Assembly (NCBI GenBank): GCA_021831595.1
Contig: JAKBMK010000017.1
Span: 1 to 41,731 of the forward strand
Length of the DNA stretch: 41,731 nt
Origin: a bacterium
Lineage (GTDB): Bacteria > Patescibacteriota > Minisyncoccia > Phycocordibacterales > UBA9973
Direction of reading: 5' to 3'
How positions within the stretch are numbered: position 1 is the first letter of the stretch; each line of letters begins with the position of its first letter. Position numbers and translations under genes: made by a program. Below the pieces are notes generated by a model that was not told the DNA's origin, searched no databases, and was given only the letters and a program-made list of their open reading frames with translations. Below, piece after piece: positions 2 to 5,005 of the stretch.

Positions 2-1003
2 TTTAATCGCGAATCTCTCTATAAAACACTGCCAAAGAGAAGACTTGAGAAGTCTGCAAACTTTATTGGAGAAATGGGAACAAATCCTTGTGGAGAAATA
101 ATTTTGCGCTCAAGACAATTTTGTAATCTATCCGAAGTTGTTGCTCGTGCCGAAGATACTGAAGCAGATCTAATGAGAAAGATTCGCATTGCTACAATAT
201 TAGGAACATACCAATCAACACTTACTAAGTTCGGTTATCTATCCAAAGAATGGAAGGAGAATTGTGACGCAGAGAGACTTCTCGGTGTGTCAGTCACAGG
301 CCAATGGGATTCAAAACTTTCACGTGATCCGGAGATGCTCAAAAAATTAAAACTTGAGGCTATCCGTGTGAACAAGATATACGCTAAAAGATTTGGAATA
401 AGTGAATCTACTTGTATTACCGCGGTAAAGCCATCAGGAACTGTTTCTCAGACGGTTGATTGTTCGTCTGGTATGCATCCTCGTCATGCCCCTTACTACA
501 TTCGTCGTGTTCGTATTTCTGCAACTGATTCACTCTTTAAAATGATGAAGGATCAAGGAGTTCCTTATCATCCAGAAGTTGGTCAAACTCATGACGATGC
601 GAATACTTTTGTTCTTGAATTCCCAATGAAGGCACCACAAGATGCGATTTGTAAAGATGATGTTTCTGCTATTGAACAGCTCGAACATTGGAAGATTGTT
701 AAAGTAAATTATACAGAACACAATCCATCAGTCACTATTTCAGTGGGAGAGAATGAATGGATACAAGTAGCTCACTGGCTTTATCAGAACTGGGATATAG
801 TAGGAGGACTTTCATTCCTTCCACGCAGCAATCATGTCTATCAACTTGCTCCTTATGAAGCAATAGACGAAAAGACCTATAAAGAACTTATAAAAAAGAT
901 GCCCGACTTTGATTTCTCAAAGATAGTAACTTACGAAATGAGAGATGAGACAGAAGTGAAGAGAGAGCTTGCTTGCGTTTCTGGTGTTTGTGATATAGTC
1001 TAG
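2..1003 (+). CDS. Adenosylcobalamin-dependent (class II) ribonucleoside-triphosphate reductase, C-terminal part, truncated by left edge
   Basis: Frame is open from base 2 through the listed ATG at 74; NPCGEI motif, 'CITAVKPSGTVSQTVDCSSGMHPRHAPYYIRRVRI' and 'EHNPSVTISVGENEW' are class II RNR-like blocks. Confidence 0.88.
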   Translation, partial: FNRESLYKTLPKRRLEKSANFIGEMGTNPCGEIILRSRQFCNLSEVVARAEDTEADLMRKIRIATILGTYQSTLTKFGYLSKEWKENCDAERLLGVSVTGQWDSKLSRDPEMLKKLKLEAIRVNKIYAKRFGISESTCITAVKPSGTVSQTVDCSSGMHPRHAPYYIRRVRISATDSLFKMMKDQGVPYHPEVGQTHDDANTFVLEFPMKAPQDAICKDDVSAIEQLEHWKIVKVNYTEHNPSVTISVGENEWIQVAHWLYQNWDIVGGLSFLPRSNHVYQLAPYEAIDEKTYKELIKKMPDFDFSKIVTYEMRDETEVKRELACVSGVCDIV

Positions 1004-1009
1004 ATTAAT

Positions 1010-1531
1010 ATGAAAAATTGGATTAAATATACAATTGCATTTATTTCTGTAATGGTCTTTAGGTTGATACCTTTTAGAGCTCCAAACGTAGAGCCTGTAA
1101 TGGCAACCTTGATGCCTCTTAGTAAAACCTACGGTAAGGTCATGGTATTTATCTTTGGCTTTTTAAGTATTGTTTTATTTGATTCTATAACATCAGGATT
1201 TGGTATTTGGACTCTTATCACCGCCCTTGCTTATGGTTTTGTAGGATTAGGAGCACAATCTTACTTTAAGAATCATTCAGGTTGGAAAAACTATGCTTCT
1301 TATGCTGTCGTTGCAACTATTATTTATGATGCCGTTACCGGGCTCACTATCGGGCCACTATTCTTTCATCAATCATTTATGGTGTCTTTAGTTGGGCAGA
1401 TTCCCTTCACAATTCTTCATTTGCTAGGGAATGTATCTTTTGCTATAGTGTTATCACCAGTAATTGAAAAGTGGCTTGTTGCACCAGAAGTAAAAATTAC
1501 CAGCAATGAGAAAATAGTTTTAGTTAGTTAG
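1010..1531 (+). CDS. ECF-type transporter S component-like membrane protein (possible cobalamin/corrinoid specificity)
   Basis: 173 aa, about 5 hydrophobic segments, 'FRAPNVEPVMATLMPLSKTYG' resembles ECF S-component proteins; 6 bp after the RNR gene. Confidence 0.65.
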   Translation: MKNWIKYTIAFISVMVFRLIPFRAPNVEPVMATLMPLSKTYGKVMVFIFGFLSIVLFDSITSGFGIWTLITALAYGFVGLGAQSYFKNHSGWKNYASYAVVATIIYDAVTGLTIGPLFFHQSFMVSLVGQIPFTILHLLGNVSFAIVLSPVIEKWLVAPEVKITSNEKIVLVS

Positions 1532-1550
1532 TTGTATTTTAAAAATCTAA

Positions 1551-1660
1551 TTAATATGTTTGGAAGTGAGGTTTAATCCCTCCACTGTGCCGCAACGGTA
1601 AAGTCCAATGCTAAAGCGTTAGGAACAAGTCCGGTCTTCACATATTGATAATCCCGAGCA
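1551..1660 (+). promoter_or_regulatory. Cobalamin riboswitch
   Basis: GGAAGTGAGGTTTAATCCCTCCACTGTGCCGCAACGGTAAAGTCC...AAGTCCGGTCTTC matches the B12-box architecture; P1 arms AATATGT / ACATATT. Confidence 0.88.
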
Positions 1661-1685
1661 GGAGAATATATTTATTTATATTTTT

Positions 1686-1720
1686 ATTAAAACTCTTGCT
1701 TGCGCAAGGGTTTTAATTTT
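1686..1720 (+). terminator. Intrinsic terminator-like hairpin downstream of the riboswitch (probable expression platform)
   Basis: ATTAAAACTCTTGC-TTGC-GCAAGGGTTTTAAT, 14-bp stem with one G-T wobble, then TTTG; lies between riboswitch and the next ATG. Confidence 0.7.
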
Positions 1721-1726
1721 GTATTT

Positions 1727-2260
1727 ATGGATAAAAAAAATAAAATTATTTTAATAGTTGGCTTAATTATATCTTTAATTATAATTTTTTTTAGTATTTA
1801 CCCCTCCGCCCTCTGGGCACCTCCTTACAGGAGCAGTACACCTTTCGCATTTCGAGTGCAAGATTCTCAAGGTCTTGCGTCTGGGTCCCTTATCCCAGAC
1901 TCACCCCTTCGCAGGGGAGGATGGAATACGAGTCAGACAGTGCCTAAGGCACTGTCTGAGGAGGGGATAAAAGTTTTCCTGACAGTGCAAGATAAAAAAT
2001 ACGAAACAAAAATCAACAATGACTCATCGGTATTTGAAGTAATGGATAAAATACAGAGAGATAGTTCACCCCCCGACATTTTTGATTTTAAATATGAGAA
2101 ATATACAGGGTTGGGAATTTTTATTACAGAGATAAATGAGATAAAAGGAGGAAGGGGAGGGTACTGGATTTATTATGTGAATGGGGTAAGGGCCAATGTT
2201 GGTGTTTCAAATTATAAGATTAAGAATGGAGATATAATCTCTTGGAAATATGAAAAATAA
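1727..2260 (+). CDS. Membrane-anchored DUF4430 (transcobalamin C-terminal-like) protein with an in-frame palindromic-repeat insertion
   Basis: N-terminal TM (IILIVGLIISLIIIFFSIY); C-terminal 'GGYWIYYVNGVRANVGVSNYKIKNGDIISWKYEK' is a DUF4430 signature. ATG at 1727 preferred over TTG at 1700. Confidence 0.8.
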   Translation: MDKKNKIILIVGLIISLIIIFFSIYPSALWAPPYRSSTPFAFRVQDSQGLASGSLIPDSPLRRGGWNTSQTVPKALSEEGIKVFLTVQDKKYETKINNDSSVFEVMDKIQRDSSPPDIFDFKYEKYTGLGIFITEINEIKGGRGGYWIYYVNGVRANVGVSNYKIKNGDIISWKYEK

Positions 2261-4016
2261 AATAATTAAAAAGTTTGTTGTTTTACTAAGTTTAAGTTTT
2301 GTCTTATTTGGTTTTAATTTTGCGAAAGCTGTTGATGCTCCACTGCCTGTGAATATAAACTTAAAGGTTTACTCAGGAGATACGGTGTTATTTAATAAAG
2401 CTATTACTGTCACATCTTGTCCTGAATCACCGGCAGTAGATGCTCCTATCACTGTGAGTGGCAAGTGTGCAGTAGAACAGTCTGGATTATCAAATACTTG
2501 GACGTGGAAGTCCGCTCCAAGTGGCTGGCTGGATCAACTGGGAGGCTATACTACCACTTCTGATTTTTCAAAATCTTGGGGATGGTTTAACAACCTAGTG
2601 TATGGTAATGTGGCTCTCAATCAACACATTCTTTCAAATGGCGAAGAGCTTCTTCTCACTTATAATTCTTATCCACTTCGTATTTCTGCTCCGAAAACTT
2701 CTGGAATGGTAGGAGAAGCGATAACATTCACTGCCGAAGAAGAAAGCACTTTCGATGCTAACTATAATATGGTTTGGACAAAATCTGCAGGTACTAAAAT
2801 TACATTAGGGACTCAATCATGCACTACAACCGCAGATGGGACTTGCTCTATTATACTTGAAACTTCGGGCGGATTTAGCGTTATCGGTAGCAAAGCCCTA
2901 CGTGTTTCTTCCAATAATTTAAGTATAGAAATTTCAGCTCCTCCTCATCACTCTTCTGGGGGTTATATCAATCCTCAGCCAATATTTTTACCTAAAACTT
3001 TTTCTTTAGATAAAGCCTTCAGCTTTTTGGTTGCCAATCAGAAGCCTGATGGTTCATATGGATCTCCTTTGTATACTGACTGGGTATCGATGGCTTTATC
3101 ATTATCTTCAGATCAAAAAGCTAAAGACAAAATGATCAGCTACCTGAAAGAGAATGATATAGATACTTCCCTCGTGACTGACGACGAGAGGCGAGCGATG
3201 GCGCTTATGTCTTTAGGAGTCAATCCTTCTACTGACGTAAAGATTAATCATATAAAAAAGATTCTTGCTAGTTTTGATGGGACACAATTTGGCGATAAAG
3301 ATTTATACAACGATGATATTTTTGCTCTAATTGTTCTTAAAAATGCCGGCTACACAATAAACGATGAAATGATAAGTAAAGATATAAAATATTTAATTTC
3401 TCAACAAAAGCCAGATGGCTCGTGGGGAAGTATAGATATGACCGCTGCCTATATTGAGGCTGTGAAAGGTTTTGAGAATGTGGCGGGAGTCAGTGATTCA
3501 ATAGCAAAAAGTGAAAGTTATATAATTTCAAATCAAAAAACTGATGGAGGTTTTGAGAATCCTTCTTCTACGGCTTGGGTTTTACAATCTTTGTATTCTA
3601 ATGAACAAATTTTAAAGGCGGAGAAATATTTAGCTCTCAAGCAAGGACTAGACGGAGGAGTGGGTGATCCAGATGCGAATATTGATTCTCGTATTTGGGA
3701 GACAGCATACGCTGTCCCAGCTATTTTGCATAAAAATTGGGGTGAAATGTTAGCTAAATTCCCCAAGCCAGAAGTTGTCCTTTCTACCCCAGTAGTATCT
3801 ACTGTAACTAATAATAAGAAAGAAATAATTTCAAGTTATAAAAACAAAAAGATAGAAAATAAAAAAGAAAGACTTAATTTAATCCAAAGTAGTATTGTGT
3901 CGACGACACAAGGAGAGACCCAAAAGGAGAATAATGGCTTTTTTCATAAAGTTGGTTCATTTATAAGGAATACCAGACACTCATTCTCTTGGCTTTTAGA
4001 TAAGCTGTCACTCTAA
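2250..4016 (+). CDS. Secreted protein with DUF4430-like N-terminal domain and prenyltransferase/squalene-cyclase-type alpha/alpha toroid (intrinsic factor/transcobalamin-like)
   Basis: Signal peptide; 'WGWFNNLVYGNVALNQHILSNGEELLLTY'; repeats 'FLVANQKPDGSYG', 'YLISQQKPDGSWG', 'YIISNQKTDGGFE', 'YLALKQGLDGGVG'. Confidence 0.78.
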   Translation: MKNKIIKKFVVLLSLSFVLFGFNFAKAVDAPLPVNINLKVYSGDTVLFNKAITVTSCPESPAVDAPITVSGKCAVEQSGLSNTWTWKSAPSGWLDQLGGYTTTSDFSKSWGWFNNLVYGNVALNQHILSNGEELLLTYNSYPLRISAPKTSGMVGEAITFTAEEESTFDANYNMVWTKSAGTKITLGTQSCTTTADGTCSIILETSGGFSVIGSKALRVSSNNLSIEISAPPHHSSGGYINPQPIFLPKTFSLDKAFSFLVANQKPDGSYGSPLYTDWVSMALSLSSDQKAKDKMISYLKENDIDTSLVTDDERRAMALMSLGVNPSTDVKINHIKKILASFDGTQFGDKDLYNDDIFALIVLKNAGYTINDEMISKDIKYLISQQKPDGSWGSIDMTAAYIEAVKGFENVAGVSDSIAKSESYIISNQKTDGGFENPSSTAWVLQSLYSNEQILKAEKYLALKQGLDGGVGDPDANIDSRIWETAYAVPAILHKNWGEMLAKFPKPEVVLSTPVVSTVTNNKKEIISSYKNKKIENKKERLNLIQSSIVSTTQGETQKENNGFFHKVGSFIRNTRHSFSWLLDKLSL

Positions 4017-4071: not shown

Positions 4072-4449
4072 ATGAAAACTAAATTTTTTGTAATATTTAT
4101 TGTTATTGTTGTTTTGTTGGTAGGAGGGCTGGGAGTCTTTTTAAATAAGGATAGCCTTAAGCCATCTAATCTTGATGGGTTCACTCAGTGCTTAAAATCT
4201 TCCGGCGCCACATTTTACGGAGCTTTTTGGTGTCCTCATTGCCAAGAACAAAAGAAGGAGTTTGGATCTGCTGCCAAGTTTCTCCCTTATGTGGAGTGCT
4301 CGACTCCAGATAATAAGCAAACGCAGATTTGTATTGATCAAAAGATTGAAGAGTATCCGACTTGGATATTTAAAGATGGATCGAAGCAGACAGGTAAAAT
4401 GGAGCTTGCCGATCTAGCTGCCAAGACAAAATGTTCTCTTCCCCAATAA
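4072..4449 (+). CDS. Thioredoxin-like protein (VKOR-associated type) with N-terminal membrane anchor
   Basis: 'GATFYGAFWCPHCQEQKKEF' CxxC motif, 'EEYPTWIFKDG'. Confidence 0.85.
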   Translation: MKTKFFVIFIVIVVLLVGGLGVFLNKDSLKPSNLDGFTQCLKSSGATFYGAFWCPHCQEQKKEFGSAAKFLPYVECSTPDNKQTQICIDQKIEEYPTWIFKDGSKQTGKMELADLAAKTKCSLPQ

Positions 4450-4450
4450 T

Positions 4451-5005
4451 ATGCCAGCATATGTAGAAATAATAAATAAGATTTTATCTGTAGGAACAAT
4501 TTTTCTACAAATTGCTATTGTTCTTTTGTTTATAAATTTATTATTTTTTAGAAGTAATAGAAATAATTTTTTGCTTTTTTTCAAGAAATACACTTTTATT
4601 TTAGGCTTTTTAGCTGCCTTGGGGGCATTTTTGCTTTCTCTCTTTTATTCAAATGTAGTAGGATTTCCTCCTTGTGAGCTTTGTTGGATTCAGAGGATTT
4701 TTCTATATCCTCAGTTAATTCTCTTTAGTATGGAATTATACAAAAGAGACAGATCAATTATTGACTTTAGCATTGTCTTTGCCATCTTTGGTTCACTTGT
4801 ATCTTTGTATCATATATATATAGAGAATGGGGGGAGTTCAAGCTTGGGCTGTGCCATTTCGTCTTCATCTGCCACGCAAGTCTCTTGCGCTACTCGTTAT
4901 ATATATGAATTTGGTTATATAACAATGCCAACAATGGCATTAACTCTCTCCTTATTCATTATCATAATCTTGATGAATTATAAATATATTTCTAGGATGC
5001 AATAG
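4451..5005 (+). CDS. Disulfide bond formation protein DsbB/BdbC family
   Basis: Multi-TM, 'GFPPCELCWIQRIFLYPQ' CxxC plus second Cys pair 'LGCAISSSSATQVSCATRY'; 1-bp gap to the thioredoxin gene. Confidence 0.88.
   Translation: MPAYVEIINKILSVGTIFLQIAIVLLFINLLFFRSNRNNFLLFFKKYTFILGFLAALGAFLLSLFYSNVVGFPPCELCWIQRIFLYPQLILFSMELYKRDRSIIDFSIVFAIFGSLVSLYHIYIENGGSSSLGCAISSSSATQVSCATRYIYEFGYITMPTMALTLSLFIIIILMNYKYISRMQ

What the first reader, a model, noticed from the sequence alone, without database searches (positions are those of the whole stretch)
2..4016. Candidate intrinsic-factor/transcobalamin-like B12 acquisition locus in a CPR-type genome
Seen: class II RNR C-terminus, an S-component-like membrane protein 6 bp later, a cobalamin riboswitch, a membrane-anchored DUF4430 protein, and a secreted protein combining a DUF4430-like region with an alpha/alpha toroid ('NQKPDGSYG'-type repeats). 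Established: vertebrate intrinsic factor and transcobalamin pair an alpha6/alpha6 barrel with a beta domain related to DUF4430, and B12 riboswitches usually control uptake or synthesis. Inference: the two DUF4430 proteins capture corrinoid outside the cell, possibly splitting the role between an anchored beta-domain protein and a secreted barrel+beta protein, and hand it to the ECF S-component for the B12-dependent RNR. This would be a scavenging route without BtuB or BtuF.
Basis: partly seen in the sequence, partly recalled or inferred. Interest (0 to 1): 0.85.

Follow-up and report, generated by a model that had tools for sequence, protein, structure and literature searches.

The report
Riboswitch-controlled bacterial B12-scavenging locus
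A tiny-genome (CPR) bacterium that cannot make vitamin B12 but needs it to make DNA building blocks carries, under a B12-sensing RNA switch, two cell-surface proteins related to our own B12-carrier proteins (intrinsic factor, transcobalamin) beside a likely lone vitamin-uptake membrane protein, which suggests a B12-scavenging route that I could not find described.

Summary
In order: class II RNR C-terminus (2-1003), S-component (1010-1531), AdoCbl riboswitch (1535-1676) with a 14-bp terminator, membrane-anchored DUF4430 protein D1 (1727-2260), and surface protein BAR (2250-4016: beta domain, Ig-like domain, alpha/alpha toroid). The block is conserved. Of 63 BAR loci with upstream sequence, from several Patescibacteria lineages, 55 have the riboswitch directly upstream of D1-BAR, and 50 of those 55 carry a terminator. 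Related loci add the cobalamin adenosyltransferase; two other families put the riboswitch directly before the S-component. By sequence profile, 14/26 BAR homologs match Pfam Cobalamin_bind (intrinsic factor/transcobalamin) and 17/26 match DUF4430; the predicted BAR fold matches transcobalamin among others. This genome has no CobS, BtuC-type permease, class I RNR small subunit or other B12-binding-domain enzyme. One correction: no EcfT occurs in any of 149 genomes, so the S-component would act alone, as BtuM does, but without BtuM's cysteine. Domain order is also reversed relative to intrinsic factor (beta first, barrel second). Corrinoid binding, the binding interface and S-component specificity remain inferred. 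Verdict: a well-supported B12-acquisition locus, a new variant of known parts.

The parts
2..1003 (+). C-terminal 333 aa of AdoCbl-dependent class II ribonucleotide reductase (NPCGE, PSGT and C-terminal CVSGVC motifs), truncated by the contig edge
   Evidence: TIGR02505 E=9.9e-43; motifs; full-length ~780 aa relatives with ATP-cone and RNR-II insertion domain
1010..1531 (+). S-component-like membrane protein (6 helices), probably solitary; invariant His137, no conserved Cys
   Evidence: PF07155 27.6 bits, all 21 homologs hit PF07155; AF2 pLDDT 88, S-component folds top of PDB fold search; best solved S-component by sequence CbrT 6fnp E=0.15; no EcfT in 149 genomes; residues
1535..1676 (+). AdoCbl (cobalamin) riboswitch aptamer
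   Evidence: RF01482 51.3 bits; covariation; conserved upstream of D1-BAR in 55/63 loci
1686..1717 (+). intrinsic-terminator hairpin (14 bp) of the riboswitch expression platform
   Evidence: equivalent in 50/55 loci against 24/110 shuffles
1727..2260 (+). D1: DUF4430 beta-domain protein with N-terminal membrane anchor
   Evidence: PF14478 E=6.1e-16; profile hits gastric intrinsic factor and transcobalamin II first in PDB, weakly; N-terminal hydropathy 3.07
2250..4016 (+). BAR: surface protein, beta domain + Ig-like domain + alpha/alpha toroid + disordered linker + C-terminal helix
   Evidence: AF2 pLDDT 83
2349..2690 (+). BAR DUF4430-like beta domain (aa 34-147) with a Cys57/Cys73 pair; nearly all homologs have a similar N-terminal Cys pair
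2700..2936 (+). BAR Ig-like beta domain (aa 151-229)
   Evidence: strand pattern in model
3006..3749 (+). BAR alpha/alpha toroid (aa 253-500)
   Evidence: helix ladder in model; SHC profile hit 2.5e-16; Cobalamin_bind in 14/26 homologs
3939..4004 (+). BAR C-terminal helix (aa 564-585), probable membrane association
4072..4449 (+). membrane-anchored thioredoxin/DsbA-like protein (CPHC), neighbour, possibly oxidises BAR disulfides
   Evidence: PF00085 5.4e-05; follows BAR in the same-genus loci examined
4451..5005 (+). DsbB-like disulfide oxidoreductase, neighbour
   Evidence: PF02600 2.9e-15

Best explanation
This is a corrinoid-scavenging locus of a B12-auxotrophic Patescibacterium (close to Ca. 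Nomurabacteria). The RNR in the cell needs AdoCbl, and the cell apparently can neither make B12 nor import it by BtuCDF. When intracellular AdoCbl is low, the riboswitch aptamer is empty, the terminator at 1686-1717 is avoided, and D1 and BAR are made (inferred from anatomy; terminator conservation shown). Both are displayed on the cell surface: D1 is an anchored DUF4430 beta domain, and BAR is a beta domain plus alpha/alpha toroid, tethered or retained at the membrane. They bind extracellular cobamide in the way intrinsic factor/transcobalamin do, most likely in a cleft between beta domain and toroid (inferred). They pass it to the adjacent S-component, which carries it across the membrane without an EcfT/EcfA module, as solitary BtuM does (inferred). 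Inside, the PduO-type adenosyltransferase (contig 11 in this genome, in the operon in relatives) makes AdoCbl for the RNR, and AdoCbl closes the riboswitch. Shown: gene content, synteny, riboswitch, sequence-profile and fold relationships, absences. Inferred: ligand binding, hand-off, transport.
For: Riboswitch RF01482 with covariation and terminator, conserved 50/55 against 24/110 shuffled and 46/218 other positions. RS directly upstream of D1-BAR in 55/63 loci with upstream sequence, including contigs labelled Nomurabacteria, Taylorbacteria, Liptonbacteria and Magasanikbacteria. Operon forms RNR-S-RS-D1-BAR and S-RNR-ATR-RS-D1-BAR, with Cob_adeno_trans E=6e-44 in the operon. RS directly before S in two other families. 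Co-occurrence over 149 genomes: BAR-RS 36 of 43, BAR-S 39 of 43, BAR-RNR-II 42 of 43 (Fisher values there ignore relatedness). B12 need: RNR-II present; no PF02310 enzyme in this genome; no class I RNR small subunit in this genome or in 41 of 43 BAR genomes. No CobS in 149 genomes; no FecCD in this genome. Relationship to B12 carriers: Cobalamin_bind in 14/26 BARs (best 1.5e-7) and DUF4430 in 17/26; IF and TC the leading PDB profile hits for D1 and for the BAR beta region; TC among fold hits of BAR.
Against: No ligand or binding data. The window's own BAR does not individually reach PF01122 or DUF4430. The PDB hits of D1 to IF/TC are weak (0.016-0.18). Fold search ranks complement TED proteins and terpene cyclases ahead of TC, TM-scores are low because the chain is multidomain, and pTM is 0.51. 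S-component substrate cannot be read from the fold: folate and riboflavin S-components rank first, CbrT is far down, and the CbrT sequence hit is E=0.15. Ig-like domains in some BARs would also fit adhesins. 8 of 63 loci lack a detectable riboswitch.
Confidence: 0.72

Rival explanations
1. D1 and BAR do capture corrinoid, but the neighbouring S-component moves something else (riboflavin or another vitamin/nucleotide precursor), and B12 enters by an unidentified transporter.
For: PF07155 is named for riboflavin S-components; fold neighbours are FolT/RibU; no energising module found.
Against: S sits next to the B12-dependent RNR in the same-genus loci examined, co-occurs with RNR-II in 49/50 genomes, shares operons with the adenosyltransferase, and lies directly behind the riboswitch in two families.
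Confidence: 0.15
2. BAR is a host-attachment adhesin of an episymbiont, toroid plus Ig-like domains, whose expression is merely timed by B12 status.
For: Ig-like, HYR, PKD domains in some orthologs; TED_complement toroid hits; fold search led by complement C3/alpha-2-macroglobulin; variable N-terminal region.
Against: No thioester CxEQ motif in any of 26 BARs, and the window toroid has no Cys. Toroid core strongly conserved with many invariant polar residues. Constant pairing with DUF4430 and with RNR-II/S. Cobalamin_bind hits.
Confidence: 0.09
3. BAR is a terpene-cyclase/prenyltransferase-like enzyme using the same toroid.
For: Squalene-hopene cyclase is the best sequence hit (2.5e-16).
Against: Has a signal-like N-terminus and an extracellular-type beta domain. 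The DxDD acid motif is present in only 6/26 homologs by pattern and its first position varies. Linked to B12 regulation.
Confidence: 0.02
4. The riboswitch-D1-BAR linkage is only inherited gene order in one clade and says nothing about function.
For: Most loci are from one family and the Fisher values ignore relatedness.
Against: In 30 of the 63 loci RS-D1-BAR stands without RNR or S in the upstream DNA held, so the riboswitch stays with D1-BAR while other neighbours change; it reaches lineages labelled Taylorbacteria, Liptonbacteria and Magasanikbacteria; covariation and terminator conservation show selection on the RNA.
Confidence: 0.02

Closest known systems
Vertebrate intrinsic factor / transcobalamin / haptocorrin (Pfam PF01122 + DUF4430-type beta domain)
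   Same: Alpha/alpha toroid plus DUF4430-type beta domain in an extracellular protein; detectable profile similarity for both domains and fold match to transcobalamin.
   Different: Reversed domain order (beta first, toroid second), an extra Ig-like domain, a membrane-associated tail, a separate anchored beta-domain partner, riboswitch control, and bacterial surface. Cobalamin binding untested.
BtuM, solitary S-component-like B12 transporter (PMC6072759)
   Same: S-component fold in genomes without EcfT; proposed uptake without an ECF module.
   Different: BtuM uses an essential Cys80 as cobalt ligand and occurs mostly in proteobacteria; this family has no conserved Cys and an invariant His137 and matches PF07155.
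ECF-CbrT B12 transporter (6fnp)
   Same: The only solved S-component detected by the S profile (E=0.15).
   Different: CbrT works with an ECF module; no EcfT here. Low structural rank.
BtuG/BtuH/DUF4465 surface B12-binding lipoproteins of Bacteroides (PMC6143338, PMC8941943, PMC13398666)
   Same: Logic of surface capture before membrane transport (analogy from abstracts, and general knowledge).
   Different: Different protein families; those feed the outer-membrane transporter BtuB.
Bacterial DUF4430 proteins such as RUMGNA_00854 (3u7z)
   Same: Same beta-domain family by profile (E=0.12); DUF4430 also found in the Lactococcus lactis and Methanosarcina acetivorans control genomes.
   Different: RUMGNA_00854 is deposited only as a putative metal-binding protein; no toroid partner or riboswitch was examined here.

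Membership tests
AdoCbl riboswitch (RF01482) | Covariance-model match above gathering score | tested here: met
   51.3 against 50 bits; homologs up to 68.2 bits; covariation
Class II (AdoCbl-dependent) RNR | Match to AdoCbl-RNR models and RNR-II insertion domain | tested here: met
   TIGR02505 1e-42 for the fragment, below the full-length cut-off because truncated/divergent; full-length relative 289 bits (cut-off 340) with PF21995 RNR-II insertion domain
Intrinsic factor/transcobalamin (PF01122) | Toroid recognised as Cobalamin_bind | tested here: inconclusive
   14/26 homologs at E<=0.05, best 1.5e-7; window copy itself not
Intrinsic factor/transcobalamin | DUF4430-type beta domain in the same chain | tested here: met
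   17/26 homologs; profile hits TCN1/IF; window copy only through the profile
Intrinsic factor/transcobalamin | N-terminal toroid followed by C-terminal beta domain | tested here: not met
   Order is beta, Ig-like, toroid
Intrinsic factor/transcobalamin | High-affinity cobalamin binding between the two domains | not testable with these tools
   -
DUF4430 (PF14478) | Score above gathering cut-off (D1) | tested here: met
   59.1 against 23.8 bits
ECF transporter S-component | S-component fold/profile | tested here: met
   PF07155 above cut-off; S-components top fold search
ECF transporter (complete) | EcfT (CbiQ) in the genome | tested here: not met
   0 of 149 genomes over cut-off; 9 of 14 controls over cut-off
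BtuM | Conserved cobalt-ligating Cys | tested here: not met
   No Cys column above 7/21; invariant His137
BtuCDF | FecCD permease in the genome | tested here: not met
   none in G000
Terpene cyclase | Conserved DxDD acid motif | tested here: not met
   pattern in only 6/26 homologs, absent in the window copy
TED/complement thioester protein | CxEQ thioester motif | tested here: not met
   0/26

The most novel reading that the evidence does not exclude
Patescibacteria use a two-protein, intrinsic-factor-like extracellular cobalamin receptor (anchored beta-domain D1 plus beta-and-toroid BAR), under an AdoCbl riboswitch, to load a new clade of solitary, ECF-module-free S-component that imports B12 for a B12-dependent RNR, making it a self-contained B12-capture pathway distinct from BtuBFCD, ECF-CbrT and BtuM, and a prokaryotic counterpart or possible ancestor of the metazoan B12 carriers.
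Probability: 0.5. Interest if true: 0.85.

Novelty: new variant of a known kind. Interest (0 to 1): 0.72.

Why it matters
How ultra-small, host-associated CPR bacteria obtain B12 is not covered by any paper I could find, yet many depend on a B12-requiring enzyme for DNA precursors. This locus gives named, testable candidates for surface capture and membrane transport. It supplies a function hypothesis for prokaryotic DUF4430, and gives a prokaryotic comparison point for the origin of intrinsic factor and transcobalamin. A solitary S-component without the BtuM cysteine would be a further test of how S-components work without ATPases.

Tried and rejected
RF00174 in the own genome: no hit, the related RF01482 model is the right one. 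Complete ECF transporter: rejected, no EcfT. BtuCDF: rejected, no FecCD in this genome (a few partial hits elsewhere). B12 synthesis: CobS absent in 149 genomes. Other B12-binding-domain enzymes: none in the own genome. BtuM membership: rejected, no conserved Cys. Terpene cyclase and thioester (TED) readings of the toroid: rejected on motifs. Eight BAR loci without RS by my model were rechecked with Rfam: none at gathering threshold. Paper searches for DUF4430/B12 and CPR/B12 found no prior description; the library lacks most subscription journals and all preprints. Not tested: class III RNR, BacA/SbmA-type importers, other B12-synthesis genes, domain interface (no PAE or coordinates available), a phylogeny of toroids including metazoan sequences.
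Full report
WHAT IS THERE. The window is contig 8 of an 807-kb, 95%-complete genome; the nearest named relatives are Ca. Nomurabacteria and other Patescibacteria. The RNR is cut by the contig edge; full-length relatives are ~780-aa enzymes with an ATP cone and the RNR-II insertion domain. The AdoCbl riboswitch at 1535-1676 scores just over the Rfam cut-off (51.3 against 50 bits). Homologs score up to 68 bits. Over 30 of them the helices covary strongly: 92.9% of cells paired against 37.9-47.9% for slid structures, with 121 double-changed cells against 42 in shuffles. A 14-bp hairpin with a T run follows at once (1686-1717), then D1, whose stop overlaps the BAR start.

REGULATORY LOGIC. In 55 loci carrying both riboswitch and BAR, a terminator-like hairpin lies just behind the aptamer in 50. 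The same scan finds one in 24 of 110 shuffles and 46 of 218 other positions on the same strand; at a stricter energy the figures are 43/55, 11/110 and 32/218. This is the anatomy of a transcriptional OFF switch: genes on when AdoCbl is scarce. The sense of the switch is inferred, not measured.

CONSERVATION AND LINKAGE. In the same-genus loci examined the order RNR-S-RS-D1-BAR recurs. In other genera of the family S-RNR-adenosyltransferase-RS-D1-BAR is common, with Cob_adeno_trans at E=5.7e-44. A scan of 85,488 species genomes with the BAR profile gave 80 loci. Of the 63 with at least 400 nt upstream of D1-BAR, 55 have the riboswitch on the same strand directly before D1-BAR. In 30 of the 63 neither RNR nor S is in the DNA held, so the riboswitch stays with D1-BAR even when other neighbours change. 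Labels include Taylorbacteria, Liptonbacteria and Magasanikbacteria. Two further families (G111, G142) carry the riboswitch directly in front of the S-component itself, which ties S independently to B12 regulation. Over 149 related genomes BAR co-occurs with riboswitch (36/43), S (39/43) and RNR-II (42/43); p-values there ignore relatedness.

THE NEED FOR B12. The genome has RNR-II and an adenosyltransferase (C11:6218-6739), no class I RNR small subunit (absent also in 41 of 43 BAR genomes), no B12-binding-domain enzyme, no FecCD/BtuC permease and no CobS (none in 149 genomes). Class III RNR was not tested. The class II RNR is therefore the one B12 consumer detected.

THE PROTEINS. D1 is a classic DUF4430 (59 bits) behind one strongly hydrophobic segment; its family profile finds gastric intrinsic factor and transcobalamin II first among solved chains, weakly (E 0.016-0.18). 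BAR is predicted with good local confidence (pLDDT 83, pTM 0.51): beta domain 34-147, Ig-like domain 151-229, helical toroid 253-500, disordered linker, C-terminal helix. Among 26 BARs, Cobalamin_bind (the IF/TC toroid model) hits 14 with best E=1.5e-7, DUF4430 17, SQHop_cyclase_C 26. The BAR profile reaches transcobalamin-1 and intrinsic factor through its beta region (E 0.002-0.004) and the fold search lists transcobalamin among the significant matches, behind complement proteins and terpene cyclases that share the toroid. Catalytic and thioester motifs of those other toroids are not conserved. Nearly every BAR has a Cys pair in the N-terminal extracellular part, and in this genus a DsbA-like/DsbB pair follows, which fits disulfide-bonded surface domains (inference).

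THE S-COMPONENT. The fold is an S-component (FolT/RibU-like). By sequence the only solved S-component retrieved is CbrT, the B12-specific one, at a weak E=0.15. No EcfT exceeds cut-off in any of 149 genomes while 9 of 14 controls do. It must therefore be solitary or use an unrecognised partner. BtuM sets the precedent for a solitary B12 S-component in organisms lacking EcfT (PMC6072759), but its essential Cys80 has no counterpart here; the invariant residue that could ligate cobalt is His137 (inference).

JUDGEMENT. That this is a corrinoid-acquisition locus is well supported. That D1/BAR bind corrinoid in the IF/TC manner is the best reading of two independent domain relationships plus riboswitch linkage, but is not shown. 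Membership in IF/TC is not claimed: domain order is reversed, and the window copy itself falls below the Pfam models. Solitary S-component transport is the least certain step. I found no earlier description in the open literature held, which lacks many journals.

Noticed in passing
L045, L046, L049, L064 (G071, G087, G120, G081): An AdoCbl riboswitch stands before a different operon: an unknown ~640-710-aa protein, a ClpA/ClpB-like AAA ATPase (~555 aa), a ~105-aa protein and a TraG/HerA-like ATPase. No obvious B12 role.
   Followed up: partly
L062:7815-11004 (G092): AdoCbl riboswitch directly before class I RNR small and large subunit genes, as expected for a B12-repressed B12-independent RNR.
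   Followed up: partly
L121:5848-6091 and L063:7691-7934 (same genome): Two cobalamin-riboswitch hits in tandem, 3 nt apart, upstream of D1-BAR.
   Followed up: no
window 1860-1980: The D1 linker of this genome holds a palindrome-rich stretch (13-nt arms 1933-1945/1947-1959) mostly missing from orthologs, perhaps a small repeat element inserted in frame.
   Followed up: partly
L092 (JACAAW010000164.1, titled Bacteroidetes bacterium Cfx2-01): Carries RNR-S-RS-D1-BAR of the CPR type; probably a mis-binned Patescibacteria contig.
   Followed up: no
window 4072-5005: DsbA-like (CPHC) and DsbB genes follow BAR in this genus and lie nearby in some other genera; may oxidise the Cys pairs of BAR.
   Followed up: partly
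L043:6821-7429: An extra DUF4430-type protein with a twin-arginine-like N-terminus lies just before the riboswitch in G086.
   Followed up: no
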